Shown piece after piece: positions 11,712 through 56,627 of a stretch of 64,000 nucleotides of DNA. The number at the start of each line of letters is the position of its first letter. Within the stretch, counting starts at the first letter, position 1. The position numbers were made by a program, and so were the translations under genes. The DNA lies in NCBI RefSeq assembly GCF_002999335.1, contig NW_020312756.1, forward strand, positions 1-64,000. Direction: 5' to 3'. The notes beneath the pieces were generated by a model, which made no database searches, had not been told where the DNA came from, and worked only from the letters and a program-made list of their open reading frames with translations. This DNA comes from Cyclospora cayetanensis (taxonomy: Eukaryota; Apicomplexa; Conoidasida; Eucoccidiorida; Eimeriidae).

Positions 11712-13941
11712 ATGCAGGCATTTTGCTCGCTCATCATGCAAAGTAGAGATCATTCCTCGGGCGGCCGTGGCAGACCGCCCCCAGATCTTCCCGCGCCACC
11801 ACTTTCCAGCTATCGACCGTTCAAGGCTGAGGTACTCCTGCTGATGACCATGCTCTTGTGTTGTACAATGTCTGAGGAAGCCAGCCCAGGAAGCGGCGTA
11901 GCGAAAAAGTTTTTAGAGCGCGAGAAAGCGCTTCCCAATGAGACCAACCTAAATTGGGATGAGAGTAAAGCCAGAATTTCTCTGCACACAGTCTCCTCGA
12001 AGAGAGGCCACGGATCTCCAGACGACGATCTAAGCCTTCTCCACCCAGACACCGAGAAGCAGGAACATGCCCAAAAGAAAAAACAATCGCCAGATAGTAA
12101 AACAGGGACAGAGCTATCAGCGAGCGTTCGCCAAATTCAACTTAAGCACAAGGGAACCTATTGGGTTGAACTAAGGGTGGAGGTGCTCGGAAGCGATGGG
12201 AAACCGAACAAGGGGTACAACGGCGGTGTGGTTGCATCCCTTGTCTTTGCCGATGAGGCGGATCCGCAGCGTAGCAACAAAAAAGCGATTTCGCATGATG
12301 TAGTAAAACGTTCCAGAGAAAGAGCTGTTAGAATAGCATCAAAGGTAGCTGTCGACGGTACGTTGCACTTCCACAGGACGCCTTGCTCCAACCAGCTGAG
12401 GATATCTTATACAATGTTCTAGGTACGCCATACATGTGACATTTCCCACTGTAGTATGTTTAAATCTGCAAAGATGGGTTGGTATCTGTGTGCATAAATG
12501 CTTTATAGGCGTGGCTATTCTTCATTTCAGCCCCCCATTCGATGGAAACTACAGTTTTAGTATTACGTGCGGAGGGTGCAAGGACAAGATCAACACAGAA
12601 AAACATTACTTCGTGGCGGGAACCCATGCAGCATTGCGAATCGTAACCCAGCCGTCGGGGGCAAAAAGCGGCACTGTCCTTGAACAGCAGCCTGCTGTGC
12701 AGATCCAGGACAGAAATGGACTGCCAATACACGAATCCATCATCGTCAAGGCTACAGTTGTCCCTCATAATGGGGAAGACCACGAAATATGTAGGGGAGT
12801 GCACTACAGACAGCTAAGAGTACGATAATGCCATCGCCACATGCATAAGATGCTCTCACCTTGCCCTTTTTGCTGGACTCAATTCCTTCACGTCGCTGCG
12901 AAGAGCAAAGAATGCATCCACATGGTATGTCAGTTGTTGCTTTGTGCAGCTTCAATGCCTTATTGGACTTTAAAAACAAACAAAAATGGATACGCGCGTG
13001 CTGACGGTATCAGCGTTAATCGGGCGGGAGAACATGTAATTCACTTTACGGCTACGTTATGGGGTGACACTGTCCTCCACGCGTCGTCGGCGCCGTTTGA
13101 AATAGTTCCTGGCCCAGCGGTCGCATCTGCATTCTCGTTGAAGCCGCCTTCCCGTGTTCTTGTCCGTGAGCCCTTTAGTGTTGTGTTGAGTATCGTGGAT
13201 TCCCAAGGCAATGAAACAACAAATCCTCCTGAACTTTATAGGGGAGGCACACCGTTAGAGGTTCACTTACATGCTTTCGACGAAGCTGGCAAGAAAGTCA
13301 TGCTGAATGGCCAGGTAAAGCGGCTTTGGGGAGGAGGCCAAGTATCTTTTGAAGGACTTTGGCTGACACAGCCAGGCGTAGTTCTGCTGAAGGTAGGGCT
13401 TAACTGATAGAAAATAGATGGAACAATCTACTCAAAGCAGAATCCAGATCACTTAATCACCCTCATTACAAAAACTCTTGAATCGGGTAGTTTCCTTTTC
13501 ATGCGCCATGTAAAACCTCTTGACTCATTCACTGTGATGCCTTGCTGTAAATAATACCAGTTCTCTCTGTGACATTTTCAGGCGACCTGCACACTGTGCA
13601 AGGAAGGCAATGCCGACTCGTCAGCTACGGTAGATGTCGTTTCAGTCTCGCGGGTGCACATATACCCACTACCCTTGTTGGTCGAGCCTCGCACCGAAGA
13701 TAATTCTGGAGGTTCCCTGCCTAAGGAAGGCTGGGGACAACTGCGGATATCCCTTAAGGCAGAAGATTGGATGTTGGGTGCACCTCAGAAGCCAGTATGG
13801 GTGGCAGTGCGGGATATTAGTCTATTCGCCCCTCTAAGTGGCTTGACCCCGGAGGACGGAGCAAAATACCTAAGGGTTGAGCCAACGCGTTTGTTGTTTT
13901 CTGTAGATGCCGCAACAGCTGTCCAGACATTTTACGTCCAG
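11712..13941 (+). other. giant protein: N-terminus and filamin/Ig-like repeats (exons 1-4)
   Basis: Exons are about 11712-12420, 12531-12790, 12950-13392 and 13582-13941. Exon 1 encodes a Pro-rich start, a short hydrophobic segment (VLLLMTMLLCC) usable as signal peptide or anchor, a charged linker rich in Lys, Asp and Ser, then a beta-rich module. Exons 2 and 3 carry filamin-type immunoglobulin features: a Tyr-Ser-Phe-Ser-Ile strand, a Cys-x-x-Cys pair and a segment reading NGYARADGISVNRAGEH, which matches the filamin pattern of DG then a beta strand then AGxH. Exon 4 continues with beta-rich sequence. Exons 2 to 4 join in matching phase. Exon 1 ends with an in-frame TAG immediately before the GTACGC donor, and exon 2 needs two preceding bases, so this junction does not close as written. 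Extracellular placement follows from the downstream membrane segment. Confidence 0.7.
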
Positions 13942-16900
13942 GTGAGCTGAAAGCGGTGTGCTTGTTCCGTGTGCTCGTATTGGTGCCCTTTCACAATCAG
14001 TTTCTTAATAGGGAATTTTCATAAAGCGCTGTAGTGCTGGATTAGCAATATGTACTGTTTTGTAGCCTTTGGTCACACTGCCTTTGCAGCCTTGGAGTCC
14101 TGGAGTGGTTGTAGGCAGTGAAGGCCTTTCTCAGCCCCTAGCTGGTATATTTATTGCTGCCTTCTCCATCACATTCGATGTATTTTCTGATGACCCATCT
14201 TGGAACTCAGAAGCTGTGGTATTTGATATCCCCTCTCCGGCGCTTTTACGTGGAACCGGCTTAATACACAATTCTGGGCCTAAGAATGTTACAGTGTATA
14301 CTAAGGATAGCGACATGTATGAGGTTTTGGCATCCTTCCCCAAGCAGCAACTTGTTCGGGAGGGAGAAGAGGTAAGCAAGGCTTGCGACCGTAGCATCTT
14401 AAAGCCATTACTTTCAATTTGCTGGACAAGATTCCGAGACATAGGTCCGCGGGTCGCGCCTCTCGCTCCATCAACCAGATACCAAATGCAAGTTTGCTGC
14501 AGATCACATACACACTTCGCCTTTCTGTGCCTCCCCTACAAAGCGAAGTGGTGACTGTCCGCATTATTGGCGATCAAGGTGCACAATATTCTGTGCAACC
14601 AGAGACATTGCACTTTAGTGCGGGCAACTGGCAAGAAGAGCAAACAGTCGTTTTAAAGGTTGACCAGGACGACTTTGCTCCGGCTGAGGTAGGCATCCCA
14701 GCACTTTACTGCATATAAAAATTGGCATCAGCCCCTTCACTTCCTTCATTCCGTCTCACTAGAGCAGAATTGATCAAAAATATGCATTGGTTACTGTCCT
14801 TTTCACCAGTGATCGTAAATCACTTGCATATATGGCAAGGTTTCACCTGTTCTAGAAGTGTTGCTTAGCTGTCCTTCTTGCCACTCTCTATGCAGAACGA
14901 ATTTTTACTGAAGGGGAGTGTAACTGGCAGTGCCCTTCGAACGGTGCTGCTACGGCATGAGCTCTTCAGCACTGAAGCCCTCAATTACTGGCGTATGAGG
15001 GGTGGAGCTGAAGTGACCTTTTCGGTATGGGATGATGACATTGCAGGGGTACGTCTTCATTGTCTCTACATACACAATCAGCAGCAACCTTAAATTTGTG
15101 CAAATTACAGGAAGCTCTTCGGGAGAATAAATATATTGCATCCACGAGCAAAGGAAGAAGGTACAGTGCGTGGCCAAGTGGACTGTTTTACAGGTGGAGT
15201 GGCATACCAGTACACATGAACTCATTGAAAAAGATGAGCTCAAACTGGCATTTCGATTAAGATCCCGGCCACTTGCTGACGTCCGCCTAGAGCTGCTGTG
15301 CGAGGGCATGGAAGTTACGTCACAGGATCAAAAATCGCTTACTCGTGACAATACATCGACACACGTGGATTCCAGTGTCAGCAACGAACTGAGGAGGGTC
15401 ACGGTGGCACCAACTGAATGGCGGACGCAACGCAGCTTTACTCTCCAGCTCCAGAACGGCATAGATGAGTCTATTGGCGTCTTGGGTGACCACCGTACGC
15501 ATGCAGTTGCACGGCGCCCTCAAAGATGTTTTAGCACTAAATGACCTCCCCCGTTAAATTTGCCCAGACGGACCGTAAAAGCCCCGGGATTATCAAATGT
15601 GGACGACTGGACAGAGTGGCACATGCATTTTGTGATATCTTGCTCAGAGGCAGATAGTGCAATATTCCAGACTGTGTGCATTTTAAAAGCCTTTTCAAAA
15701 GATAAAAACTACAACACAGGTAGAGCTAATGCATACTACACAACACAAAAAGCTGCGCTGCTTGAAATGCATGCTATCAACTAGTATGCTTAGCCAGGAG
15801 TACAACAATTATCGTTGGAAAGATGGGAACTACTACAAAGTAGTCTCTTAGTACAGGCCATTTCTGGGGAGGTTTATGCTTTGCTGGTTTTTGCTCAGAG
15901 GGCGACAGTGTAGACCACAGGCGTGGTTTGGCTAGCCGCGGTTTTGTAATACCCCTGGCAGTCAGCCGGCTTCCCATACAACATGAAGCGTGGACTGTGC
16001 ATGAACATCCAGCACGAATATCGATTGTTCCTTGTGTGGGGGGGCAGTACTTCCGGTAAGCAAGCCTGCATGGCATTGCAACAAAACTCTTGGAGGCTCT
16101 GAATGCGCGTGAGACCTTATTGAGCTGAGTAAATATGAAGAAGCACACTGCTGACCGTGGTCCTTGCTCTGATGTTGCAGTGCTGGCAATCAAACTGCTG
16201 AGTGCTTATCCTGCCCGCCTGGCCATGAATGCCCAGATCCAAGAGAGCCTCCTAAACGATGCCCTACGGACTATATGTCCCTTGGCGGACTTGTGGCATG
16301 TTTTCCATGTCCAAGAGGTAAGCGACACGTAGACAATACAGCTTCTCAATAATACGTGACACCTGCTTGGCGTATTTGGCATGGTGTCAGTGGAGGGAAG
16401 TGACGGCTTGGGTATCGCTGCTCATTTTCTCTAGGATTCATATGCCCTGAGGGAACGGCGGTCCCAAGACAGCTGAAATCAGGCTTCTACCACGGTATAA
16501 CGCAAGCCGGGGAAGATGTGGCTGACAGCTCTACTGTCGCTCTGCCCTGCCCCGAGGGATTTTACTGCGTTGGAGGGGCAAGGCCACCGGAACCTTGCTT
16601 GCCGGGCTATATTAGTGGAATAGAAGCTAGTGAATGTTCAGCCTGCCCCGCGGGCTTTATGTGCAAGACTACTCGAGCTGTGGACATAGAGGTCAGATAA
16701 AGCGGTTCCGAAATTTCTAGTGTGCACTAGTATTAGCCACGCAGTATCCTTTAGCGAGCGCAATGTCCTGAACCTGTTCAGAGGATCGATAAAACCAATG
16801 GGATGTGGTATGCAACCAATCCGCGCCATGCACAGCTGTCACTTCGTGATTGTATCCTGATACTTTAGGGAGCACATCCATGTATATTTACTACCGTCTC

Positions 16901-19900
16901 ACACAGGGGTTAGCTGCGTGCATACAATTGCAGTCAGAGCGATGTGCCTTGCGCGGTAACAGCCTTGCCCGAAAGGATCTTACAGTTTGAAAGGGGAAGA
17001 AACATGCCGGCCCTGTCCTGCTGGATTTGCATGCGCAAGCCCACAATGGCGTACACCTGATGATTTGCTTGAAGTCGCATACATGGAAGGTGAGGGTAGC
17101 GGAGATAGCTTTACGTTGAACAGAAGAGAAGAAAACTTGGACTCTCATTCCTTCATTGAGCAAATGGATGTGGAACTACTGCTCCCCTGCAGTGTGGGGT
17201 ATCACTCAAGTGAAGTAAGGAGAAGCCCGCAGGAGAGCGCCGGCGCCAGCTAGTTCTTCGTACCCTACTCCAGTAACCGTATTCTTGCAAGCCTCGACTC
17301 GTCGTCAGTCTTCTTGTATGAGTGAAATGCATGTGGTACTCAGGGTGAGGCAGACTGTGTGCCGTGTGGTGGACCAGTCGCATGTCCTACATCTTCCACC
17401 AGGGAGCATTGTTTCGTCCCCTTTACTGTAGCTCTACCTGATAACCCAACGGAATGCGTCCCGTGCCCCGCAGGTACAGCATCTAACTAGATGTTTGCAC
17501 TCTGCAGGGCGGGCTAATAGCTCAATAAATTGCATTGCGCAATTCGCATTTGATCTCGGCATAAACTCAATATTTTAAGCACCGAGGTCTCCCACCGCTC
17601 ATGCATATTGCAGGGCACTACCACCAGTGGTCACATGCATAGCGATTCTAAGGTTACAGTTACACGACTATGACTTAAACATTGCCATGTGAATGCGCAC
17701 AAATAAGGCCGGTTACGAGTGCACATGCTTACTACCCCATAATGCAATTTTTCTGCAGGCCACTCCTGCAGTAAAGGTGCAGTGGAGAGATGCCCGGACT
17801 TCCACTATGCCAGATTAGGGGACGGACTCTGCCGACTATGCAAAGGCGGTTATTTGTGCAAAGGCGGTGCAGACGCTCCGGATGAGGGCGAGCTAGTTCC
17901 GGTCGGGTAAGTAAATGGGAGCATTGTGCTTTGTTATTTTCAACGTTTGAAATTCCTACAGTGTGACCTTAATCCCGTGCCTGCTCCTTGTGTTCGGAGT
18001 ACAAGAAGCACATTCTTGGGTAATGCTTTGCTTGGAATCCAATTCCCCTGCGTGCTCAGATACTACCGGTCTGACCATGATACAAGTGCACATCCCTGCC
18101 CAAATGGCACTCTGGGATTAGTGGCTGGAGCAACTAGCGTACAGAGCTGTTCCCCTTGTCCTGCTGGGTATACTTGCGAGCGGACGGATAACGGAGGGGA
18201 GTATACAAGAACGGTGGCAAGGAGCTGCCCTAAAGGCCACGTTTGCATTCCAGATGCTGTCCCGTGTCCCGTTAGTAAGCATGTTTTACTGAAAGGATAC
18301 GCATTACAACTGCACGCATATGCCACATAAATACAGAAATGCTGCTTTTTGCCTTGAGAGGCAGCACTAGCTGCTTTAGCAGATGTAAATTTTGGGCTTT
18401 GTCCCGTAAGTTCTGCTTGGATACAGCGTTTTACCAATGTGAAAGCTTTAATGTAGACATAACAAATGGACGAATATTCCACGGAGCGCATTGTGTTTGT
18501 TTCTTCATTTTGACCAGATACTGTCCAGCCTAACCTGGGGTCAACAGCAACAGAATGCGATGTCTGCATGTCTGGTACTTATACCCGGGGTTCTGGGCAA
18601 GTCAACTGCATCGCTTGCCCAACCGGCTATTATTGCATTACAGGGGTGGGCCCTTTACCTTGTCGTTATTCTACTACACCTGGCTCATTCCCAAGTAAGT
18701 TGGACAACCACACGAAATTACAATGGTGCTATTTTTGGTTGGATTTCGAATACCAATATGTGCAATAACACCACTTCTTGAGACGTATGCCTTCTCTACG
18801 CTGCGATATACAGTTGAGAGGCTCGATATGTGTTCCCGGCAACCTGGGGAGTTCGTCGTGCAAAAAAAGGAAAGGATGTTCACAAACACGGACACTTGCC
18901 CCGACGGAAGTACGCACCCTGATAATCTTAATGATGGCACTGGCTTGTTTAGCATGGAGTCCTACGCCAGCTGTTTGAGCTGCCCTGCCGGATATGCCTG
19001 CCCTGGTGGACCGGTCCCCACAAAAGCAGAGAAGTGCGTGAGAAGTATGTGATGGGGAATCCAGTCACATTATAATTGAGGGCTGGGTAGGGTAGGAGTG
19101 ATGATTCTGAAGGAGCGAATCGCTAACAAAGAATATCACAGGCCACTCGAATAGGTGTGATTGCTTTCCGTTAACCAGTTCTGCCGTTAAAATTGTTCCG
19201 AGTCCGCAGGTGCGGGCACGGATTCTTCTGTCCTCGAGGGACCTCGACCAAATCAAAATTTAGCTGCCCCCCTGCAACTGAAGGCCATGGCGATACGCTG
19301 GAGAGTTACTCAGAGTGCAGCTTGTGCACAGCGGGGTTTGTGCGTCAAACTGTTGGAATAACATTCTTCACCATAGCAAATCACTTTGTTGCTAAGCTAC
19401 ATGTGTGCGGCCACATTGTATATAGTGGTTGGTAGATAGAAAAACTGGAATTATGCTTTTCATGCCAGGCATGCACAGTAACTTCGAAAGTTGGATGCCC
19501 GGCAGGATACTATTGCCCTGAAGGTAATGAATTTTAAAGTGTAGCCGAACACCCGCCGAAGGATGCTTGCCTCTGACCTGCATCAATTGATGGAAGAAAT
19601 ATTAGCAGTACTCGTTGTTGAGAGCGCCCTTGTACTGGTAGCCCAATTCTTTTCGGTGTCTGAGAGGCTCACTCTTCACACTGGCTGTGTCCTCCAGGGT
19701 CGTGGAATGCATATCTCCATCCTTGCCCAGCGGGCACCTTTTCAGCCATTCTAAACGCAACCTCAAAATCAGTATGTGTGAGTGTTCTTCCGGGGTATTG
19801 GTCTTCTCCTGGAACGCTCATTGCCAACCTATGCGGCTTTGGAAACTACTGTCCCCCTGGGAGTACGGAGCCTATACCATGCCCAAGGAAGACCTATTCG

Positions 19901-22900
19901 ACCCTTATTAGTGGAGTCAGTACAAAACATTGGTCAAGCTCGTACATCCCGTGCACTCTAGCAGCAAATGTGTTATAACATCTGAGAACACATGCGAAGG
20001 AAAATATATGCATTGGTCATTGTTGCTTGGTGCATTACAACAAGATGCGGACGCTCTATCCTTTGCCGTGAAACAATTGCGCCCATCAGATTTTAAATGA
20101 CTGCGTATCGTGCCCCGGAAATAGAATTTGCCCGGAAGGATCAACAAAGACATATACATGCCCAAAAGGTATGCCAGTACAATCCTCTGTCACAAAATTG
20201 GACGGTGTGTCGAAATTCCGTAAGTAGGGAATTGTATGGGGCATGTTTCCACATCGTTAGCTTGAAGCAGAAGTTTTGTGATAGAATACGCCACAACGTA
20301 CTCATACTGTGAAAAATTACAGCTGGAGGTGGTAATCGTGTTAGGGAGCCGGACACCGGGTGGCATCTAAACCTTACTTGCTTATGTTCTCACTATATCC
20401 TTGCACGTAAGTTGAATGTGCCACTACGGCCAATGCCAACAGGCTGGTACTACAGTGATGCCGGCAATGGAGAATGCGTAATTTGCCCCTTGGGATACAC
20501 TTGCTCAAACGGTACACCTACTCTCTGCCCCACTGGCTACTACGGAGCGTATATGCCGGAAAAAGAGTCACGGGGATGTGTTGCTTGCCCACAGGTAAAG
20601 CTGGCCTCAAATGTCTCATTGAAATACACTAGCACGTAGCAGAGGCAAGAGCCAAATATGCTAATTTAGTTTCTATCCTCAAATTATTCACAGAGGGGCT
20701 ATTGTCATGGCCTGTTGTAGAGGTTGACAGCTAAAATCATGGGATCTTCGACAAACGCCCGTGCCGCTTCATTTGCATAGCACTAACAAAAACAAAAGCT
20801 TCTGAAAAACCAGGGTACAGCCACGGGTACTGCATTGCCATTCACTTCGGAGCGCTGCAGGGCTACTACTGCGATAGTGTAGGAATGACGGCATCGTCAC
20901 TAAAGCCTTGTACCGCTGGGTTTACTTGCCATACTACCGGACTTGGTACGCTCTTGAAATGTCGTGTGCATTGTATTGAAAGCACTGCTCTCTATGAAGC
21001 ATGTCTTCAGATGCTAGACAGATCTGTTGCATGGACTCCTTACACAAAGCTACAAACAACATGAAAATTTGCTCTTTCCTAAATGTTCTGCGGCAGTGGC
21101 CATTCCTATCGCCTTGTATGATAAGCTGAAGCTGCAAAGAAAGCTTACCTATCAGGAGATGGCATGAATGTGTGATAAAAGGGATTATGAATGCGCTCGC
21201 AGAGAGGCCGTTGACAAAGTGCCCAGCAGGAACCTATTGCCCATTGGGGACAGCCTCCCGCCTAGGTATACCTTGTCCACCGGGGACGTGGAGCAATAAA
21301 ACAGGACTCGCTTCCATGTCAGAATGCATGCCCGTTCAAGCGGGGTCTTTTTCGTACGAAGGAGAGACGAAGGAGGAGGGAAGCGGGCGATGTTCCAAGG
21401 TTCGCTCTCCCATGATAAAGGCATATATTAAGGTTTTTGCCAGAAGGAGCTTTTACTGACCTACTTCAGGTCAATGATTTAGTTCAGGGCTTGCCGCTAC
21501 TCCTGGGTATGTGGTACTAATGGGTTTGCACTGAAGTGTTTTCTTACCGTCTGCACAGGGGTACTATTGTCCTGAGAGGTCGACGACTTCCATGGCCGTA
21601 GCATGCCCCCCGGGGTAAGTGTGGTGTTGCTGTAGTGCTTTGAAGCAGCTATATACATAAACAATTTACATGAACTGCGACAAGTGCGCTGTGCACTTGG
21701 CTTGCTGGAAGGTGGCATTGTTGCAATGGTGTCGCAGTTCACACAGTTGCTTCATCCGATGGCGAACAACCCCAAGTGCCTGAACGTAATACTCAACTTC
21801 AACTCAACTGTTTCTGCGAGTGTGCGTGGCCCATCGCTACAGAACATACAATCCCAATGATGGAGGAGCATCGATTGAAGACTGCCTCGAGTGTCCTGGA
21901 GGAAAAGACTGCAGTAGCAGTGGAACCGCAGAGCCCCTGCCCTGCCCAGCCTCGTACTACTGCCCTTCGGGCTCGTCAAAAGTTTTTGCTTGCCCTGTTG
22001 GGACGTTTAGGTAGACTATAGAATTATGCTGCTATATTGACCTGGAAGCAACTGTGGTTGAATGAGAGAATTCCATTATTGCGCACAAGGTGTTGCTATA
22101 AGATTTCTCGACATCACTGTTCATGCCTACTTTCAGCAATGAAGTCGGACTCGTTTCAAAGGACCAGTGCACCCCGTGCCCAGCGGGGAAATTCTGCAGT
22201 ATTGCCAGCTTGGCAACTCCGTCCGGCAATTGCGAACCCGGTTTTATATGCTACGGCATGGCAGAAACACCTACACCTACAGACGGCAAGACAGGTGAGA
22301 ATATTAGTGCTCATTTGTAGAAATTACGCCTGCACTTTGTGTAACAAAATATGTGCTCTGATGAGTTGCATTCCCGACATTTGGAATGCAATGCCACCGG
22401 CTTCAAGATTGTCAAATAAATCGTGCTCGCAAGGTTTATGCCTCATATTGCCAGCCAGTGGCGTTAGAGAACCATTACATGTGTGCTTCGCAGGAGATAT
22501 GTGCCCTCCCGGAGGCTACTGCCTGGCTGGCGCAACAGAAGTCACTCCATGCTCACCTGGGTTTTACAATCCTAGATATGGTGCTACATCTGCCGCTGCT
22601 TGCTTGCATTGCCCTTTCGGCTCATATTGTAGCGGCAGTGCAGTGACTGATGGAGGTATTACGGGACCATGCAGAGAAGGTTACTACTGTAAAGAAGGGT
22701 CAGCGAACGACCAAGCCTATCCCGCACCACAGGGCTCGTTTGCTCCAATGCGCAGTAGCAGTCCGATCCTCTGCTACCCAGGGACATTTCAAAGCGCTCA
22801 GGGCCAGGCCAGCTGTCGTGCATGTCCTGCTGGAAAGTACTGTCAGAGGATTGTAGGTCATTGAGGAACACATACAAACACCATGCTGCCATGTAGAATC

Positions 22901-25900
22901 TCCGTATTTCTCAAGAGCAGTGAATGATTGCATGTAGCATCAGCCATGAATACGGCGGCCGCAAGTATGGCGCTGCTTCGAAGTAGATGTCTACCCGACA
23001 TATCGTACATGTGACACCAGGGTAGCTGCATTACTATTATGCATGTCGTGTAGCTAAACTGGGCAGAAGCACGTGAAAGAGCTTAGCCTAGAATGCTGGC
23101 AATCATGCGAATAGTCCAAAAAAGGCTGTATATGTAGTGATTGAAGGTTGACAATAGCGTTGCACGTACAAGCGTATACTGCGTGTCTTGTAGGCGCACG
23201 TGCATTTCTACTCAGGGAATGACTGATGGGACGGTGTGCCCAAAATCATCATATTGTCCAGAGGGGTCTGTAGCCCCTGAACTTTGCCCTGCAGGAACCT
23301 ATTCCAGCAAAGAGGGCTCGCAAGTCAGTTCGGATTGCTCTCCTTGCTCTGAAGGAAAATATTGTGGAGCGAAAGGCCTTATGGCTCCATCTGGAGCCTG
23401 CCAAGCTGGATTTTACTGCGGCGGAGGAAGCGCCTCATCTGCTCCACAAGTAACTTTGTATATGCCGCCAAAGTTTTGTGCTTGTAGCTCTACCGCGGAA
23501 AGGGGCCAGACAAAAGCAGGCAATATAGTAGTAGTGTGTGGGCTTTGCGCTTTGTTTAACACAAGCTTCGTAAGTGTTTTTTTTCAGGCCCAAAATGGGG
23601 GTAACCAGGTGTGCCCAGCAGGACACTACTGTCCAGCTGGTAGCCGAGAACCTTCTCCATGCCCAAAAGGGACCTATCTTGGTTCACAGCAGGCACAAAG
23701 TGAAGCTGCATGCCTTCCTTGCAATCCAGGAATGTGAGAATTGCTGCCCGCTCTCACGATCCATGGCGCAGGGTCCACCAACCTACAACACTCTTCAGGC
23801 AGCCATGACAACTACACTCTGGTTTTCTCTCCTGCTGCGGTTCAGGAAGTGTTTTATTGAAGGTCTAGCTGCTCCGCAGGGACCGTGCCCTCCTGGACAC
23901 TACTGTCCAGCAGGTAAGGAGCTCTGCCTGATAAGCACGCAATTCTTGGCAAGGCTCCGCGGAGCTGTTGATTTATTGGACTACTTACCACCAGATTGAA
24001 ACTCTGTAGACTAGTTGCCTTTGCTTGAAGTGTGGATGACTCTCTATTAAATTATGTGAGGAACAGGCCAACAAGCAATTCCGTGCAAAATAGGCCACGA
24101 ATGCCCTGAAAAATCTGCAGAACCCTCTCCTTGCAGACCCGTAAGTGAACTCAGCAAACTTCGGCAACGGCTAGTGACGATTAAAAATCTATAGAACCTA
24201 AACTACCAAACCATGCGATAATGTCTGCGCTATGTAGGGGACATATGCAGCTTCTGAAGGAAGCGCTCAATGCCAGGAATGCCCTGCCGGATATTACTGC
24301 TCCGATGTCACTGTAGTCCCAGAGGAGAGTAAAAAGTGCCCTAGTGGCTTTTTCTGTCCAGCAGGTACTGGGTATGAGAAGGAAAATCCCTGTCCACAAG
24401 GTTCGTCTTTTTGCCGTGACGTTGCGAGTGGCAGCTCCTGAAATGTTGATGTCTGATACCTCGTGGGAGTCCCGCCAGTCTTGGTCCTAAAGAAGGAGTG
24501 CTGCCTTGGTCTACTTAGGTCCCTCCCCGCCAAGAGCAGAAACTTTGAGTCACGATTCACTCCTACATTTTTAGTTGTACCCGGACAGCTTACTGTATTC
24601 TAGTCGCACTTAAAATGCTGTTTGAATCTTCAGGGATGATGAATCAAGAAAGCGGTGCTCACTCACTAGACGCCTGCCAGCCGTGCCCAGCAGGCGGATA
24701 CTGCACAGGGCCAGGCGCTGCTACCAAAAGTGGACAGATCGACGGCGGATACTATAGCTCTAGTGGCGCGATATCTTCCAAACCAGTTCCCGGTAGCAAG
24801 ATGCTATAATAAATAGCTGAAAATTTGTGCAGAATCTTACTGAGAGCCCTTATTTAAGTGCCTTGTAACCTCCACAGAAAATGGGGGAAGTAGTCATGAA
24901 TCTGTTTGTAATCAGGCTGCAGATTGCTCGCAGCAGTTTTTGGGGGGCAATCGACACCATGCACAGGATTCGAAGGCTCGATAGAAACATTTGTCGAGGC
25001 CCAGTTACAATGCCTTAATAATGACCAGTGCCAAGGAATAGTCGAGACTCCGGATGGGGCCTTTTTCCTCAGGTTAGACAGGAATAACATCTGGATCCGC
25101 ACCAGAACCTGCGACGCTTTTGATTAGGTAGACTTAATTGCTATATAGTTTAGCTACAAAAATCGCGGAAAGTTTAGGCACCGTATGTATGGGCGACCAT
25201 TACACAGTGGCTAGAAAGTCAGTACGACAGAACGTTGCGCCTTTGCACGTGACAGAAATGATCCTGTACTGCGAGCGACTGCTTTCCAGTATATTTACTA
25301 GCAGCAGCTCCATTGTCTGGCTGATGAAAGAGAGTGTTTGGAGACAGAAATCTTTTTGCAGGTGTGGAACCTATAGCAAGGAAGGGGACCAAAAGTTCAA
25401 CTTGTTTTACCCAAAACACTGCACTATCGGAGGGGTGTGCCAGCCGGGGACGTACTGTCCACCAGGATCAGCACAACCACAGCCATGCCCTAGCGGGAAA
25501 TTTTGCGCTGCTTACGCCCTCGAAGTGCCTTCTGGGCAATGCACCGCAGGATACCTATGTCCAGAGGGTACGTAGAGTGCCTTAAAAGCCTGATCCAATA
25601 GGGGAGGCATGGGCACATCAAGGGAATGTGGAACATGGATGGACACCAGTGAATAATTGTACTTTTGTTGAACATATGCGCTGCAGGTGCAAGAAGCCCG
25701 CATCCCGCCTCGGGTTTGTGTCCATCAGGTCACTATTGCCTGGTTGAAACGAGCGCGCCCAACCCTTGCCCAGTGGGAACAATAATCAGTGGCCTGTGAG
25801 TAGTGAACTGACACAACCTAAAAACAGGGGGCATGCATATGAGCGCATGTGCAAAGTAACACGAGTGCTATGTGGGGAAACTGTTGTGTCCAGTGGGGGA

Positions 25901-34900: not shown

Positions 34901-37900
34901 CCTCTCGACAAATCAGTTCCTATCCCGTGCCCAGCAGGCTATATAGGCTCTGTCGACCGGTCCGATACCAGCTCATTGGATACGGGATGCACTATATGCC
35001 CGAGGGTAACAAATGCAACGTTGGCTGCACAACTAGAAGAGTGACAACCTTGAGACAGCGTACTGTACGTTGCAAGAGCCAGTTGAACAGAAGACAAAGC
35101 GCACTATTAGCTACAAGGAGTGCGTTTGTTTTGCCATATTTTTGAAGGGTACTTACTCGGATGAAACAGGGATGAGTGAATGCCTGCCATGTCCCCCTGG
35201 CTACGTTTGTCTTGAAGGCTGCAGCGCCAGGTAAGACGCAAACCAGGAGTGCAAATGACCAGTCACTATATAAGAACCGGTGAAAGAAATAGAGCCCGCT
35301 GTTGGGGAGTTGGGGCAAGTATCAAAAAAGGGAAAACATTTTCTAGGCATGAGGGAAAGCTGCAGCTATCCATAAGATCGCCGCCAGCGCAAATGTGTGC
35401 AGCATGCCAACAAGCATAGAGAGAGACAAAGGCTACAGGTGTCCACCTGGGACATATTGCCCCTCAGGATCTAGTAAAGAAGTATTATGCCCTTCAGGGA
35501 CATATGGTCTGCAAGCGGGTTCCTCAAGTATTGACTCTTGTTTCCCTTGCCCTGTAAGGCTCGCAACTTTTGGTTGCTAGTAGGCTGTGAGGTACGGCAT
35601 TTGAGTAGCTGCGTGATGAGGAGTATTAAGCGTCTTGCACTCTCACAGGTTATGTGCGGTGCTGCAGTCAGGAACTTACAACAATATGGAGGGCCAGACA
35701 GGCTGCATACTTTGCGGGGCCACTGCAACATCAAATTCACAAGCAACGTCTTGCTCCTGCAAAGGGACGAATAGATCGTTTCAATCAGCTGACAGGTCAT
35801 GCGTATGCCTATCAGGATTCCATTATATTCAGGGGCAGCAAGACCTCAGTGATCAAGATGGAGTTGAGCCTTGTCAACAAACGGTATGGCAATAATCATC
35901 CAAGGAACGTGCTATGGACAGTCCCACAGACTGAGTTTGCCTCGTTCTGATTCTATTCGATTCACAGACAACTACCATTGATCAAAAGTGCTAGTTATAA
36001 GGCTATTTGTGTATGCAGCTGTACGACGAATGTGGGGACGACACTTCACGTGACGCTACAGGGGCGTGCAAGACCCCGGATGAGGTTTGCACCAGTCAGT
36101 GCGGACCTGGCGGAGGCAGCTTCAGCAGCATTTCAGGCCTGTGCATGTGCGCCGGCAGAAAATCGCTGGATGAGGTGTGTGACGAAACATGTAGAGCAGC
36201 ACGTCCTCAAATGATCCTGAATAATTCGACGATAGTACTCGACGATCCTGAAAGCCTCACCGGCGATAGAGAGTTTGCTTTGGATGAACTAACATCCCAA
36301 TGGGGCCTGGCTAGCGGCGCATTCAACTGCAATGAGCGCACAGGATGCACTGTCCGGATTTTCGACACCACTCTAGGTTAGCCTTTTCAAGATATCTGAT
36401 GTACCGATTCACCTGGATGCTCGGTTTCTGTAAAAAAGAAGCCATCAACAATGCAGTTTTCGGCGATCCAATAGAAGCAGCTGTCATTTCGTCGACTAAG
36501 ACATATGAGCCTACTGCCCTCTAGGTATTGTCTGTGCAGTTGTCACAATGATGTTGTGCTCCAATTATGCAGCGAACATGAACGGGCTCGTCGGCGTACC
36601 ACAAAGCCTCGTGGATGATATCGATGAGCGAATTCAACAAGTATCGAAGGACCAAAGCAGGCTGAGTGCAGAAGAAATAAATATACATTCGTCTGCAGGG
36701 GGTTCGGACTTTGGCTATTTTGGTGTGTCAGATCCAGTGCAATGCTTGCCACTGGGTACCACTGTAGCTTGGTACATTCGCCCGAGCCCCAACCCTATTT
36801 ATCCTGTGTACCTCCGGAACAGTTTGCTGAACACGAACAAAGAATTCGATTATGGAGCATTCAGGTGAGATAATGCTGCCAAACCCAGCTGTGCGCTCTC
36901 ATAAGAATGTAGGGGCATCGTGACTGCACAAAGTAAAATTTCGATTATCCTGTTCTCAGGAGCCTCGACAACGAAATGCAAGCAGGGGAGCAGAGAATCC
37001 TTTTCCTTTTTACATTCAATGAATCAGGGTTGTACACGTTTGGCCTGAATTCTGACCAGAACAAAATTTTGGTGCTTCGAGTTATGGAAGCTAGGAGGCT
37101 GTGCAGGGAAGATGCATTGCTTCCCCAGTTGAGAACCGTTGAGACCTTGGCTGCCGTCGCTGCTCAACTCCCGTCTAACATAGAAGCTACCAGCTTGTTC
37201 ATGGCTGCGATACTCGCTATAGCCATTGGAGTGATGGGAGTGCTTGTCTTTCTGGCAGCCTGGATATTTACCCACCAGCGTCTTGAAAACTTTAGAGCAT
37301 GCTCCAAAGCCTTGAATATCCAGTTGCCGCCTAGAGCAAAGTTAGTCCAGCCATAAAACTCATCATGCAGCCAGCTGTAAGTATCAGCCATTGTTTGCTG
37401 TGCTCACATGGTTGTGGAGTCTGATGTACTGCGAGCTGCTTATGCACAGTGATGCTACCGTTGATGAGATGGCCGACCTTGTGCTCCATACTCAAGCTAA
37501 GGTATCAAGGAAGGAGGACCCTGGGGTATTGCGCGCAAGGCAAGCTTTGGCGAAGAGGCTAGATATGCAAGATCCACGTGTATTTATCGCAGTGCTTATA
37601 TTAGCAAAAGATATTCAAGAGAAAACCGAGACTCAGTGTGAACAGATAAGAACGCAACGTTGTGAGGGTCTCTCGCAACTGGTCGAAATAACAAAGTCCA
37701 TGAAGCATGAGCTTGTTAACCAGATAAAGGAAGCTGTGAACTCAGAAGTAAGACTTGCTAGATAAGAAAAGGACACCTTCAATGATACACATGCGCGAGG
37801 GGTAGAGGGCAGAAGCAGCTATCCACTAGTCTCAAGAAACCTACTTAGTCAAGTACTTGGAAGCGCTGCCGCAAGGATCAGCTGTCTAAAGCATTACTCA

Positions 37901-43900: not shown

Positions 43901-46472
43901 CACAATGTTGCACATACGCGTTGTACACGACAAGAACAACACATGTTCTGTTCATTATAGTCTAAGTAGAAAGTAACATCCCATTGCCCCATAGGCTGCT
44001 ATTGCTGCAGCTGCTTGCTCGAAGACATAACAAGGAGGTATCATGCCTCCTTCAAGAGCTGTCTTTGAAAAAGGCAGAAGACATAAGCGCGAAAATCGAG
44101 CAGTTCTGGAGTGCCAAAGGAGGGAGGAAGTTCGTGACAACATAAGTGCCCTTCGTTGACGGCAGTGCTCACTTTAGCTGCTACCTCCTGCCCCCTTTCT
44201 TCGTATTTACGTGCTAGTACCAAGCCAAGCCTTCGCGCTTGTTTGTCTACTTCCTTGCAGCTGCGACAACCGCCCCGATGATGTGCAGATGTTATACAAG
44301 GTAAGCTAGTACACTATCTGGCGAACAAGTCCTTTTCAATTCACAGATATAGTGACGTTCAAACGTGTCGAACTCGATGACCGTTTGCAGGCCGAGCTAC
44401 AGGAGCTTCTTTTCGTGGAGACGCAGGCGGTATGTGTCTTGCCCATGTATCGGTTTTTAAAGTCACCTAGTTGCACTGAATGAATTTATATCAATATTAT
44501 AATGGGGGCTGGGTCCTCTTAAAAACAAAATGATATAGCCCGACAGGGCAAATTGAAGACCGCACCACGATTGGGTCCTTTGTATGCCAGGCCGAAGACC
44601 GTATGACTTTGCAGCTGCAGGAATTGCAGCACAAACAAGCTAGTGAAATAGAGGACATTTTAAAGCATATGGAATGTAGATTGAAAGCGAAGCAGGAAAG
44701 AAAAACAGTGCGCTTTGAGGGGATTTGAATCTACCACACACGCGGACACAGTTCTCTAAGAGAACACCTAGTAGTCTAGAACGGTGGAATAAACATCTTT
44801 AAGACCAATAATTTTGTTCATATATAAGTCAAGTACATTTATCTGCAGAATCTGTCAGAACAAGAACAAGCCTTTCAATTGAACAAGGAGGCTGAAGCTG
44901 CAGCACAAGAAGAAATTGGAATCCTTGAACAGCGCATGGTGGAAGAAGAGCAGCAAATCATAAAAGAGATGGAAGAAAAACGCCATGCATACGACAGGCT
45001 GCTGGGACAGCTGCGACAGCGAAGGGAGGCAGAGGAACGGCGACGCGTACTACGGCAAAACCATGTGAAACGAATAGAAAGAGAGGCGCCGGGCAGCGAA
45101 TTGAGCCATCTTATGGGCCAATTCGCCGAAGATACAAAGTTGCTTGACAAAGCATTAGCAGAAGAAGCTGAACGGCAGCACAGCATTATGCGGAAGAGGG
45201 CACTTCTTAGAAATGCCGAAAAATCTGAACGCTTGAATACGAAGCGGCTCGTTGAAAAGCAACGGTTTCTTATTAATCAGAGCGAGATTCGGAGACGTGA
45301 AATAGCGCTTGTGAGTGGCCGCCCACCAGCACGTCAGGTGGTAAATAGCCCAAAACAGATAAGCTACGGGATGAGGTTGACCTTTGCTGCGGGATAGCCC
45401 TTTACAAAATTTTTCCTGTGGTTCTTTGCATTTGACTCCCCATGGGCTTGCTGCTTTTTTACAGAACACTGCGAGAGCAGGCGCAAGGACCCAGAGGCAT
45501 ATGGTTGAAACAATGAACAAGAAAGAGCTGGAAAAGAGGTATAACTACGGTTGCTAAGACGTTCATATGGCTGGCATTCCTTGGTAGATAAATATTTGAA
45601 ACTGACCAAACTGGGTCAAGCCTTATCTGGTGAAAAACAACCTGCAGGTTTTAAGTCCCCCAAGTCTTGTTCTACCATCGAGTATTCAGTGCTAAAGTAA
45701 TTATGGAAACAATGCGCTTTTTCATTCAGAATGGAGCTTGCACATCGGCTAGAGGAGCAACGGAACTGGGCTCCTATTTGGCGGGAGATCTTTGAGGAGG
45801 AACAGAACGCCGGCACGTTCGATTCTTGGGAGCATGATGATGAGCAAATTACATGTGAGCTTTGCCAGTATTAGCCAGGATTGGAGACTCATAGCAATAG
45901 GAGGGAAGCAACAACCGGAGAGTAGCCCTATCAGGAATCGTAACTAAACAAAGTATTTTCTTGTGAGACCTTAATGCTCAGTCGCAGGGCACTTTGCAAC
46001 AAATCTGTTGCACACGGAGCGGATACTCATCAGTGAAGCGGCCTTCATGCGTGAACTTCTTGGAGGTTTCCGAAAGCTGAGTTATATTCTTTCATTGATT
46101 AAATTGGCTCCGAACACGGAGCCCATGCGCAGTCAAGACGAGATGCCAGGCACATCTTCCGAGAGTGAATCCTCTGTCGAATCCACTGGCTCAGAGGTTA
46201 TTACGACCAACTTGAGCAATAACAAGAGCAGCAGCAAGAGCAGCAGACTGGACTCGAGTAGTGATTCATCTGCCTCCCAGGTCTCCTTAGGATCTAGTTC
46301 TGGCGACAGTAGAGTTAGCGGCTTTGAGGTATCGTCGAGCACCAGTGGATTATCAGCCTCAGAAGGCAGAAGTCAAAGCAGCTGCACTTCTGGTGACTCC
46401 AGCAAAAACTCTGCCATCAGTAAATCAGGAGATATAGCTGATGGCTTGAGGGGCAATCCGAATAGGGGATAG
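11712..46472 (+). CDS. giant GCC2/GCC3-domain type I membrane protein with coiled-coil cytoplasmic tail (about 92 exons)
   Basis: This is one spliced gene with about 18.8 kb of coding sequence (about 6,200 residues). I started it at ATG 11712, followed after some 40 residues by a short hydrophobic run that may be a signal sequence, and stopped it at TAG 46470-46472. Domain order is filamin/Ig-like, Calx-beta-like, GCC2/GCC3 array, NHL propeller, second GCC2/GCC3 array, Cys-rich stalk, one transmembrane helix, long coiled coil and Ser-rich end. Nearly every exon ends in a phase matching the next acceptor, which supports a single transcript. Junctions near 12420, 15490 and 25127 do not close. 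GCC2/GCC3 proteins are known as large coccidian surface or secreted proteins. A linker between outer matrix and cytoskeleton is my inference from topology. The gene could be two if the intron at 37341-37449 is not removed. Confidence 0.85.
14066..15491 (+). other. giant protein: Calx-beta-like repeats (exons 5-8)
   Basis: Exons are 14066-14371, 14503-14688, 14896-15048 and 15194 to about 15491. The repeated pattern is an LVREGEE-type start, a TYTLRLS strand, a later NWQEEQTVVLKVDQDD strand and an acidic DDDIAG turn leading into the next strand. This is the layout of Calx-beta-like modules as they occur in coccidian multi-domain surface proteins; in Na/Ca exchangers the acidic turn binds Ca2+. 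A second copy begins at 15194 with LIEKDELKLAFRLRS and ends with a WRTQRSFTLQLQNGIDES strand. Exons 5, 6 and 7 are symmetrical phase 0 units. The 3' end of exon 8 is unclear: the frame runs on to TGA near 15543, but a GTACGC donor near 15492 is more likely. Its junction with the next exon (16181) is unresolved. Confidence 0.65.
16181..27174 (+). other. giant protein: first GCC2/GCC3 Cys-rich array (exons 9-40)
   Basis: Thirty-two small exons encode tandem modules of the form CPxGxYCP(E)G...CxxCPAGxYC. Exons with matched phases include 16181-16317, 16435-16691, 16963-17214, 17344-17473, 17759-17906, 18060-18274, 18518-18694, 18814-19048, 19210-19339, 19469-19523, 19698-19915, 20090-20168, 20323-20594, 20861-20945, 21203-21399, 21559-21614, 21843-22010, 22137-22294, 22494-22852, 23216-23449, 23588-23733, 23846-23913, 24067-24140, 24238-24400, 24634-24792, 24937-25127, 25362-25567, 25687-25795, 25894-25988, 26188-26343, 26571-26783 and 26899-27174. 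The motif is that of the GCC2/GCC3 (ephrin-receptor-like) family, whose cysteines pair within each module to make a stiff extracellular rod. Many introns split the Gly codon of CPxG in phase 1. Adhesion or matrix binding is likely but not shown. Confidence 0.82.
24937..25127 (+). other. giant protein: PAN/apple-like insert (exon 34)
   Basis: This exon interrupts the GCC2/GCC3 array with a different Cys pattern: CTGFEG, an ETFVEAQLQC helix, a DQCQGIVETPDG turn, FFLR and a final TRTCDAF. Apple/PAN modules share the layout of a helix ending in Cys, then Cys-x-x-Ile, then a beta hairpin with Phe, and a last Cys. They bind carbohydrate or protein in micronemal adhesins of coccidia. The assignment is by pattern only. 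The exon enters in matching phase (G from 24792 plus TT), but the frame reads GAT TAG directly before the donor GTAGAC, while exon 35 (25362) needs two preceding bases. One surplus base at this end would explain both facts. Confidence 0.5.
27274..29385 (+). other. giant protein: NHL-type beta-propeller (exons 41-48)
   Basis: Exons are 27274-27516, 27663-27821, 27910-28116, 28223-28329, 28488-28709, 28822-28862, 29003-29150 and 29277-29385. Repeated blades end in motifs such as DVYISDYSNFAVRVV, NLYIADSGNHSVVRH, LYVVDSGNKR, VLVVSDAGARA and FADSYMHRVRRI, each preceded by a small-residue turn (GTGFPGTGG, LANPLGLALDED, LPSGVVVDKQ). That is the NHL signature of (V/I)-A-D-x-x-N-x-x-(V/I)-R at the end of each four-stranded blade. 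About five to six blades are visible, enough for one closed propeller. NHL propellers usually bind protein or glycan ligands. All junctions close in phase. The propeller begins directly after a GCC module and returns to one at IPCPAG in exon 48. Confidence 0.75.
29555..35553 (+). other. giant protein: second GCC2/GCC3 array with a non-Cys insert (exons 49-62)
   Basis: Exons are 29555-29746, 29895-30166, 30387-30654, 30869-31167, 31352-31500, 31815-32028, 32186-32602, 32772-33089, 33218-33363, 33509-33787, 34034-34353, 34689-35005, 35148-35230 and 35403-35553. Most carry the same CPAGxYC modules as the first array; 32186-32602 is the longest uninterrupted block. Exons 50 and 51 (29895-30654) hold an insert of about 180 residues poor in cysteine, with beta-strand pairs such as LLVIELENPMDLVNIRIEA and IVLRFHHRNSSGLVRVEL. 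It resembles a jelly-roll or discoidin-like fold, but I cannot name it. The exon at 31815 closes in frame only if its donor is GCAAGG at 32029. Donors after 32602 (GTTTGA) and 33089 (GTCTGT) are weak but give matching phase. Confidence 0.78.
35668..37340 (+). other. giant protein: Cys-rich stalk, pre-membrane domain and transmembrane helix (exons 63-66)
   Basis: Exons are 35668-35883, 36019-36376, 36525-36864 and 36960-37340. The first two encode a stalk with CSCKG, CVCLSG and CMCAG pairs and repeated LDEVC segments. The third and fourth encode a beta-rich pre-membrane domain with QAGEQRILFLFTFNESGLYTF and LVLRVMEARRLC. Translation of about 37197-37270 then gives a strongly hydrophobic run of roughly 24 residues (SLFMAAILAIAIGVMGVLVF, continuing LAAWIF), followed by the basic stop-transfer segment THQRLENFR. 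This is the only convincing membrane span in the gene and sets a type I topology: the modules upstream face outward or lumenal, the tail is cytosolic. Reading through the donor at 37341 gives a stop (TAA 37354-37356) after a short tail. Confidence 0.8.
37450..45310 (+). other. giant protein: cytoplasmic coiled-coil tail (exons 67-89)
   Basis: Exons include 37450-37747, 38065-38187, 38294-38563, 38671-38730, 38884-38967, 39115-39294, 39453-39584, 39684-39835, 39878-40040, 40349-40588, 40921-41146, 41312-41532, 41714-41758, 41969-42139, 42489-42841, 42954-43065, 43199-43346, 43504-43703, 43804-43875, 44011-44133, 44391-44429, 44591-44707 and 44849-45310. Translation is rich in Glu, Lys, Arg, Gln, Ala and Leu with heptad spacing and no cysteine pattern. 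The last large exon is the clearest, with an almost continuous run of EEEQQIIKEMEEKRHAYDRL type. Most exons are multiples of three in phase 0. A rod-like dimerising tail that could attach to the cytoskeleton or membrane skeleton is likely. No known family is recognised. Two phase steps around 43.9-44.4 kb suggest that a small exon near 44261-44300 may be missing from this list. Confidence 0.75.
45465..46472 (+). other. giant protein: C-terminal segment with Ser-rich low-complexity end (exons 90-92)
   Basis: Exons 45465-45538, 45730-45854 and 45988-46472 join in matching phase and end at TAG 46470-46472. The first two continue the helix (MVETMNKKELEKR, MELAHRLEEQRNW) and end in an acidic EHDDEQIT turn. 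The last exon has a folded-looking start (WHFATNLLHTERILISEAAF and a following FRKLSYILSLIKLA), then about 115 residues dominated by Ser with Asp, Glu, Gly and Lys, such as SSSKSSRLDSSSDSSAS. Such tails are usually disordered and heavily phosphorylated, often by casein kinase 2-like enzymes at S-x-x-D/E sites, several of which are present. The codon run AGCAGCAGCAAGAGCAGCAG near 46227 is a short CAG/AGC-rich tract. Confidence 0.75.
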
Positions 46473-55800: not shown

Positions 55801-56627
55801 GTAGAAGCAGACCCATTTTGGACTTTCTGTACCAAGGTAAACGTAGGAACCTTTGTCCATGCAGCGTCAACGCTCCAAACCAGGAGTGCCCCGTCAGTTG
55901 AAGACGATACAAGGTAAGGGATGCAAAGACTGAAAGTCACAACTGTGCCACCATGCCCTCCCAACGTTTGGACACATTCTAAGCGTTTCTCAAAGACGCG
56001 CCAAACTTTAACTGTTCGGTCTGCTGATCCACTGAGCAGCCAAGGATCGGAGGTCCCCCAACTCTCCTTTCCAGAGCTTAACAAGGGAGTTACTCTAAAA
56101 TTGTCTTGATGTGGATTAAGCACAACCTGCAAGCAATGCACCGCTCCACTGTGCTGGCAAATTTTCTTCACCGAGGCAGACCTTTCTGGAGGACCGGTGA
56201 GGTCATGCTGGAAATAGAGGATCTCTCCAGAGGTCAAGCCAATGAAGGTAATCTTGAGCTCAGATGACCGGAAAACAGACAGAATCTGATTGACGGTCTC
56301 TTCCCTAGTTCTGCAAGTTTTGTTTAGCAGGTCAAAGTCTTCTTGAAAGAAAGTGTTTGTTACAGTAAATGATACTTCATAGGACAAGTTAGGCGGGCGT
56401 TCCAGGGCGGCTATCACATCAGCTTTGGTACCCAGGGCAAGCGATGTGATTCTCTCTCTCCGAACTTGGTTTTTTGGTACAAGTGAGTGCCTCGAAGAGG
56501 CTCGCAACGGCCTGCTGCCGGGCTGCATTGACGAATGCGCCTTTTGGCAGCTTCCCACATAGTATGGGTGGCAGGACAGATGTAGCCTCCCACGCTGCCC
56601 CAAGGGAGGCAGCGCGAAGAGGTTGCT
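52821..56627 (-). CDS. WD40-repeat protein (seven supported exons; 5' end uncertain)
   Basis: Minus-strand exons in transcript order are 55782-56627, 55080-55746, 54816-54921, 54276-54385, 53866-54074, 53235-53280 and 52821-53134, with stop TAG at 52821. Every phase matches, giving at least 765 residues. Blades are clear: LLSGSADRTVKVWRVFEKRL, YLVSSSTDGALLVWSVDAAW, RICAGSTDGSIVLLES, ALLTGHENGSVRCWQLP, MVLTCGYDGKICLLSV and LLVSGSLDRTVRVWRPESAE. These give at least two seven-bladed propellers, so a protein scaffold; no enzyme domain is visible. The intron after 54276 needs a GC donor (GCAAGG). The 46-base exon contributes half a blade strand. The donor of the first exon may instead be GTACAG at 55832, giving an 86-base rather than a 35-base intron. 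The first exon starts at an acceptor, so the start codon lies upstream. No specific orthologue is claimed. Confidence 0.8.

What the first reader, a model, noticed from the sequence alone, without database searches (positions are those of the whole stretch)
11712..46472. About 6,200-residue protein joining an adhesin-like ectodomain to a long cytosolic coiled-coil tail
The sequence shows filamin-like, Calx-beta-like, GCC2/GCC3, PAN-like and NHL modules, then one transmembrane helix and over 1,300 residues of coiled coil with a Ser-rich end. Coccidian GCC2/GCC3 proteins are known as large surface or secreted proteins, but I know of no description of one with a tail of this size. The architecture suggests a single-molecule bridge between outer matrix and cytoskeleton.
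Basis: partly seen in the sequence, partly recalled or inferred. Interest (0 to 1): 0.8.

Follow-up and report, generated by a model that had tools for sequence, protein, structure and literature searches.

The report
Giant CAST-family surface-to-cytosol protein
The window holds what looks like a real, very large single-pass membrane protein gene of the human gut parasite Cyclospora, but its layout (cysteine-rich outside, one membrane crossing, long helical tail inside) belongs to an already described, widespread and little-studied protein family.

Summary
My own gene finder gives one + strand gene, 11,868 (better 11,712) to 46,472, about 96 exons, 6,150-6,420 residues: Ig-like N-terminus, GCC2/GCC3 arrays, NHL region, one transmembrane helix, tail of about 1,600 residues. 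In nine of nine eimeriid proteins found (one is this gene's own record) ectodomain and tail align in one chain.

The claim that no such protein is described is wrong. A truncated record of this product exists (Cyclospora "cast multi-domain related protein", 3,151 aa), and a 2015 eLife paper describes the family: cysteine-rich ectodomain, one transmembrane helix, coiled-coil cytoplasmic region, in a ciliate, stramenopiles, choanoflagellates, chromerids and coccidians. Relatives found here include oomycetes and Diplonema, some with tails near 3,900 residues.

What I add: (1) a shared membrane-proximal domain (LLNTNxxFDYGAFR) without a Pfam family, predicted as a cupredoxin fold without conserved His; (2) three more loci in this genome with that domain; (3) no Pfam support for filamin, Calx-beta or PAN.

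A surface-to-cytoskeleton tether is plausible but untested.

The parts
11712..46472 (+). Whole gene, about 96 exons, 6,150-6,420 aa (C. cayetanensis member of the CAST multi-domain family)
   Evidence: Gene models; P0001 and eimeriid relatives; start at 11,712 preferred for its possible signal peptide
11712..11870 (+). Start and possible signal peptide (AEVLLLMTMLLCC)
   Evidence: stronger segment at the same place in E. stiedai P0004; no signal-peptide predictor was run
12162..15048 (+).
   Evidence: AlphaFold2 on the E. stiedai counterpart of its first part, mean pLDDT 61.9; Ig-like PDB neighbours; no Pfam family over its cut-off; coordinates
16182..27191 (+). First array of GCC2/GCC3 (Ephrin_rec_like, PF07699) cysteine modules
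   Evidence: PF07699 genome scan; boundaries
24792..25072 (+).
   Evidence: no Pfam family found; similar stretch in E. stiedai P0004 by eye
27327..29366 (+). NHL-repeat region
   Evidence: PF01436 in P0001 (1.7e-8) and in E. praecox P0005 (4.8e-10); P0005 matches teneurin-like and NHLRC2 chains there; boundaries
29367..35900 (+). Second GCC2/GCC3 array, with an intervening Cys-poor stretch at about 29,746-30,870
35752..36213 (+). Conserved cysteine module (CSCKGxNRxFQ ... CDExCR), shared with many distant relatives
   Evidence: family alignment; coordinates
36575..37104 (+). Membrane-proximal domain, predicted copper-less cupredoxin fold, motif SLLNTNKEFDYGAFR
37180..37263 (+). Single transmembrane helix (IEATSLFMAAILAIAIGVMGVLVFLAAW)
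   Evidence: Kyte-Doolittle scans; coordinates
37341..37449 (+). Intron joining ectodomain/helix exon to tail exon; contains the TAA at 37,354-37,356
   Evidence: same join in NCBI model P0001
37450..46139 (+). Cytosolic, charge-rich, amphipathic-helical tail
46140..46472 (+). Ser-rich C-terminal end and stop codon

Best explanation
This is the Cyclospora cayetanensis member of the CAST multi-domain family: a giant type I single-pass protein. Shown by sequence: several thousand residues of mostly Cys-rich ectodomain, a conserved membrane-proximal domain, one transmembrane helix, and an amphipathic-helical tail of about 1,600 residues. Predicted: the start holds a signal peptide, and the membrane-proximal domain is a cupredoxin fold that lacks copper ligands and so serves as a structural or binding module. 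Inferred: two or more chains pair through the tail, the disulfide-rich rod stands out from the cell surface (or into the lumen of a secretory organelle before delivery), and the tail (up to roughly 200 nm if fully helical, at 0.15 nm per residue, textbook value) reaches into the cortex and engages the cytoskeleton, so the molecule anchors surface or wall material to the cell. The eimeriid Ser-rich tip would be a place for phosphorylation control. The confidence given is for identity and layout; I put the tether role itself at about 0.5.
Confidence: 0.85

Rival explanations
1. Two neighbouring genes: a GCC2/GCC3 surface protein ending at the TAA at 37,354-37,356 and a cytosolic coiled-coil protein starting at the ATG at 37,424, wrongly joined by gene finders.
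For: Reading through the moderate donor (AAA|GTTAGT) reaches a stop 14-16 bases on, and an in-frame ATG exists at 37,424; with free starts and stops a local model prefers the split, the global gap is zero when new starts and stops cost nothing and otherwise smaller than the penalties, and very strong hints also split here (weight 2).
Against: Only 67 bases would separate the genes; nine eimeriid and 20 other protein models carry helix and tail in one chain; at the three other loci of this genome charged sequence follows the helix, in the same open frame at C334.
Confidence: 0.05
2. Organelle tether rather than surface tether: the ectodomain lies in the lumen of a secretory compartment (microneme, wall-forming body) and the tail positions or docks that organelle, as golgins do.
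For: Topology is the same for a lumenal and a surface protein; long cytosolic coiled coils are typical of organelle tethers (general knowledge); a possible signal peptide is present.
Against: Family presence in oomycetes, Diplonema and, as published, chromerids, a ciliate and choanoflagellates suggests a role not tied to coccidian organelles; nothing here separates the two.
Confidence: 0.3
3. A flagellum- or basal-body-linked surface protein, kept in coccidia because their microgametes build flagella with intraflagellar transport.
For: In PMC4501334 the family is in coccidians but not Cryptosporidium, Theileria, Babesia or Plasmodium (section read), and IFT components are said to be lost in apicomplexan lineages except coccidians (passage). 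Relatives found here include oomycetes and Diplonema, which have flagellated cells (general knowledge). The N-terminal Ig-like model finds Chlamydomonas mastigoneme chains among many Ig folds.
Against: The same paper says Tetrahymena and Paramecium, both ciliated, lack it; the mastigoneme match is generic Ig-like, and sequence searches of two relatives (P0018, P0005) against PDB chains listed no mastigoneme; no expression data.
Confidence: 0.15

Closest known systems
CAST multi-domain protein family (Oxytricha OXYTRI_15408, Chromera Cvel_3066.t1; Woo et al. 2015, PMC4501334)
   Same: Cys-rich ectodomain, one transmembrane helix, coiled-coil cytoplasmic region; coccidian members stated; the Cyclospora and E. 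mitis records bear the name
   Different: The section gives no size, no cupredoxin-like domain and no NHL or Ig-like modules; I did not compare with those two named sequences directly
Eimeria stiedai Esti_002354 (P0004, 6,116 aa) and Eimeria flavescens Efla_004403 (P0006, 5,987 aa)
   Same: Full-length counterparts: N-terminal region, Cys-rich arrays, NHL, membrane-proximal domain, helix, tail, Ser-rich end
   Different: About 34-49% identity in the best local segments
Cysteine repeat modular proteins (CRMPs; PMC9815656)
   Same: Very large apicomplexan proteins with ephrin-receptor-like (GCC2/GCC3) modules; the legend of their domain figure also lists coiled coil among the domains of selected CRMPs (passages). 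PMC9806345 counts GCC2/GCC3 proteins as CRMPs (passage)
   Different: [quoted passage not shown] here one transmembrane helix and a long helical tail
Diplonema papillatum 'Cytadherence high molecular weight protein 2' (P0007, 5,854 aa)
   Same: Cys-rich array aligning with the GCC2/GCC3 part, the cysteine module, the membrane-proximal domain, helix, and a 3,370-residue charged tail
   Different: No precomputed Pfam domain; no alignment to the N-terminal or NHL parts among the 12 rows printed; no tail match; the deposited name looks like a coiled-coil mislabel
Plastocyanin / amicyanin (cupredoxin fold)
   Same: Predicted fold of the membrane-proximal domain
   Different: No conserved His; sequence identity about 8-19% in the listed rows

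Membership tests
CAST multi-domain protein family | Cys-rich extracellular domains | tested here: met
   9-10% Cys over the two array regions; PF07699 matches
CAST multi-domain protein family | single transmembrane helix | tested here: met
   one segment at both Kyte-Doolittle thresholds in the 6,394-residue model
CAST multi-domain protein family | coiled-coil cytoplasmic region | tested here: met
   1,636-residue charged tail with significant helical period; heptad signal only in residues 700-1,400 of the tail; no coiled-coil predictor was run
CAST multi-domain protein family | sequence relation to a named member | tested here: met
   P0001 and P0002 carry the family name; no direct comparison with the Oxytricha or Chromera sequence
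CRMP family | nine transmembrane segments | tested here: not met
   one transmembrane segment; definition from PMC9815656 passages
CRMP family | EGF-like conserved core | not tested
   no direct comparison with a CRMP sequence was run
Ephrin_rec_like / GCC2_GCC3 modules (PF07699) | profile match over curated cut-off | tested here: met
   (window places C375:18541 and C375:22757 over the cut-off on their own)
NHL repeat (PF01436) | profile match over curated cut-off | tested here: met
   P0001 34.5 bits against a cut-off of 20
Filamin, Calx-beta and PAN domains | Pfam match | tested here: not met
   no such family listed up to E 1 in the N-terminal 726 residues, the PAN-like segment or E. praecox P0005, or in three eimeriid N-termini
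Cupredoxin fold | plastocyanin-like beta-sandwich | tested here: inconclusive
   [not shown]
Cupredoxin fold | copper-binding His/Cys/His/Met set (recalled from plastocyanin) | tested here: not met
   no His column of 40% or more in 19 aligned sequences

The most novel reading that the evidence does not exclude
The CAST family is an old, widely distributed eukaryotic class of one-molecule links between surface matrix and cytoskeleton, defined by an uncatalogued copper-less cupredoxin domain just outside the membrane, with Cyclospora keeping four of them, one with an enlarged Ig-like and NHL-bearing ectodomain.
Probability: 0.35. Interest if true: 0.6.

Novelty: already known. Interest (0 to 1): 0.3.

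Why it matters
It removes a novelty claim, gives the existing truncated Cyclospora record a near full-length model, and makes a barely described family easier to test: a shared domain motif for finding members, a predicted fold, and four loci in one parasite. If the tether reading holds, coccidia would share with oomycetes and diplonemids a surface-to-cortex linker that Plasmodium, Babesia, Theileria and Cryptosporidium are reported to lack.

Tried and rejected
Two early gene-finder settings failed: one overfitted to 311 tiny exons, one found no gene. Hints of weight 0.5 gave one gene of 6,784 aa; weights 1 and 2 broke the locus into 4 and 12 pieces by pushing exons into introns, at weight 2 also at 37,356/37,424; the model reported uses 0.2. 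tRNA, Rfam and tandem-repeat scans of the window found nothing. PDB sequence searches with the two alignments gave one chain at E 0.23 and none. No protein named Toxoplasma, Neospora or Sarcocystis was in the three search listings, but the listings also held no further protein named Cyclospora for the three other loci, and each search had length limits, so absence is not shown; PMC4177681 lists two Toxoplasma 'GCC2 and GCC3 domain-containing' genes (passages) that I could not compare. No ephrin entry is among the 50 fold rows shown, which excludes nothing. Papers: searches for 'cast multi-domain protein' and 'cast multi-domain' each returned one paper, PMC4501334. Searches with GCC2, CRMP, Cyclospora, cupredoxin or sexual-stage terms listed, judged by titles and abstract starts, no other paper on this family; two listed PMC4501334 again. 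Seen as passages only: PMC9815656, PMC11321763, PMC9806345, PMC4177681, PMC4345034 (41: none of the terms 'multi-domain' or 'GCC' in its main text); PMC4501334 as passages (33, 36) and section 55 whole (97).

Full report
What was asked. The window is the first 64 kb of a 167 kb contig in a 43.2 Mb genome of 392 contigs.

The gene. No eukaryotic gene predictor was at hand, so I wrote one: a Viterbi model with codon-position Markov scores, donor and acceptor matrices, and in-frame stop control. Trained on window open frames, it returned a single + strand gene, 11,868-46,472, 97 exons, 5,678 codons. Adding weak support from tblastn matches of nine eimeriid proteins (one being this gene's own database record) gave one gene at all four settings,418 aa; at the setting I use, 96 exons, 6,342 aa, 90 of 96 exons supported in frame, introns 54-397 bases, median 146. 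All 1,356 tblastn hits start between 11,600 and 46,600 on the + strand. Stronger hints gave 6,784 aa in one gene (0.5) or broke the locus (1 and 2), because tblastn matches run into introns.

The join. The exon with the transmembrane helix ends at 37,340 (AAA|GTTAGT) and the tail begins at 37,450. The summed splice score is 8.33, 25th lowest of 95 introns. A forced split at the TAA scores 1,095.8 against 1,109.0; this 13-unit gap is less than the 15 units that the extra start and stop cost by my settings, and it is zero when they cost nothing, a setting that breaks the region into 25 pieces. A local test with free starts prefers the split. So the gene finder alone does not settle it. The argument is comparative: in 9 of 9 eimeriid proteins both the ectodomain and the tail of this model align in one chain, and the NCBI model of this very gene uses the same join. 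These are predicted proteins, so a shared annotation error is possible, but distant relatives show the same order.

What it is. The best match is 'cast multi-domain related protein [Cyclospora cayetanensis]', 3,151 aa; 2,600 of its 3,140 12-mers occur exactly in the three + frames of the window, so it is a truncated record of this gene. Full-length relatives are E. stiedai (6,116 aa) and E. flavescens (5,987 aa); shorter models exist in E. praecox, mitis, brunetti, acervulina, maxima and intestinalis. Beyond coccidia the searches listed Diplonema papillatum, Phytophthora ramorum and infestans, Plasmopara halstedii, Aphanomyces stellatus, a record labelled ANDGO (which I recall as Andalucia godoyi, a jakobid) and unnamed or metagenomic proteins. 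In total 29 distinct proteins came from the three searches (35 rows), two species twice. In 29 of 29 a hydrophobic helix, chosen by me where a protein had more than one, is followed by a Cys-poor, charged tail of 748-3,922 residues. The searches scored regions that include the membrane-proximal domain and accept only proteins of 0.55-1.75 times the query length, so this set is selected for that domain and for size.

Already described. It is not a CRMP as defined by nine transmembrane segments (PMC9815656, passages), although another paper counts GCC2/GCC3 proteins as CRMPs (PMC9806345, passage) and the CRMP figure legend lists coiled coil among the domains of selected members.

Modules. Pfam confirms NHL and the GCC2/GCC3 module, now called Ephrin_rec_like. 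Filamin, Calx-beta and PAN are not found; one match to DUF5006 (E 2.2e-4, 20.9 bits against a cut-off of 34.1) lies in what I take for the Calx-beta-like part. The E. stiedai N-terminus is predicted as tandem beta-sandwiches with mean pLDDT 61.9 from only three sequences; its PDB neighbours are many Ig-like folds, including complement, invasin and Chlamydomonas mastigonemes, too generic to name a family. The NHL part of P0005 matches teneurin-like and NHLRC2 chains.

Other loci in this genome. The same domain is matched at three further places, C93 (-), C334 (+) and C329 (+), each with GCC2/GCC3 matches upstream on the same strand and a hydrophobic helix downstream. At C334 charge-rich frames (27-39% K/E/R/Q) are scattered over the next 5.4 kb read. 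At C329 and C93 only the start of a charged region was read. They are probably paralogues; full models were not built.

The tail. It is 1,636 residues, 33% K/E/R/Q. Leu, Ile, Val and Met show alpha-helical periodicity of 3.6 (z 4.0, 0 of 200 shuffles; ectodomain control z 1.2, 22 of 200). The 3.5 heptad period is weaker: z 1.2 overall, -0.3 in residues 1-700, 2.6 in 700-1,400. 'Amphipathic helix, partly coiled coil' is therefore safer than a continuous coiled coil. Its Ser-rich end (16-30% Ser in the last 200 residues) is seen in 8 of 9 eimeriid proteins (E. praecox P0005, 2%, is the exception) and not in the 20 others (4-15%). Tail sequence is conserved in Eimeriidae but hardly beyond: 5 of 20 others match, weakly.

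Function. Topology, disulfide-rich rod and long tail favour a tether between extracellular or lumenal material and the cortex. No domain that binds a cytoskeletal filament was recognised in P0001 or P0003, and nothing here tells surface from organelle. The family's reported presence in coccidians but not four other apicomplexan genera parallels the retention of IFT stated in the same paper (passage), which makes a flagellar or gamete role worth testing; its reported absence from Tetrahymena and Paramecium speaks against a general ciliary role.

Verdict.

Noticed in passing
G000 contigs C93:40243-40881 (-), C334:60747-60995 (+), C329:178485-178739 (+); loci L026, L031, L030, L034: Three further loci with the same membrane-proximal domain, a hydrophobic helix and GCC2/GCC3 modules upstream; C334 also has charge-rich frames downstream.
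   Followed up: partly
G000 contigs C326:425632-428676 (-), C342:168638-171526 (+), C363:133769-137323 (-): Three more GCC2/GCC3 loci without a match to the membrane-proximal domain; CRMP genes are a guess, not tested.
   Followed up: no
P0007 (Diplonema papillatum, 5,854 aa): Deposited as 'Cytadherence high molecular weight protein 2' but a relative of this family by ectodomain and membrane-proximal domain; the name probably comes from generic coiled coil.
   Followed up: partly
window 53743-56627, - strand: A WD40-repeat gene (PF00400 9.1e-9 in the open frame 55764-56627); its full extent was not modelled.
   Followed up: no
window 60170-61369, + strand: Longest stop-to-stop frame of the window (399 aa), no Pfam family over its cut-off.
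   Followed up: no
L007 (G000:C4:20001-30000): Many long open frames on both strands at once (up to 1,082 aa), as expected of repeat-rich sequence; left out of the early training.
   Followed up: no
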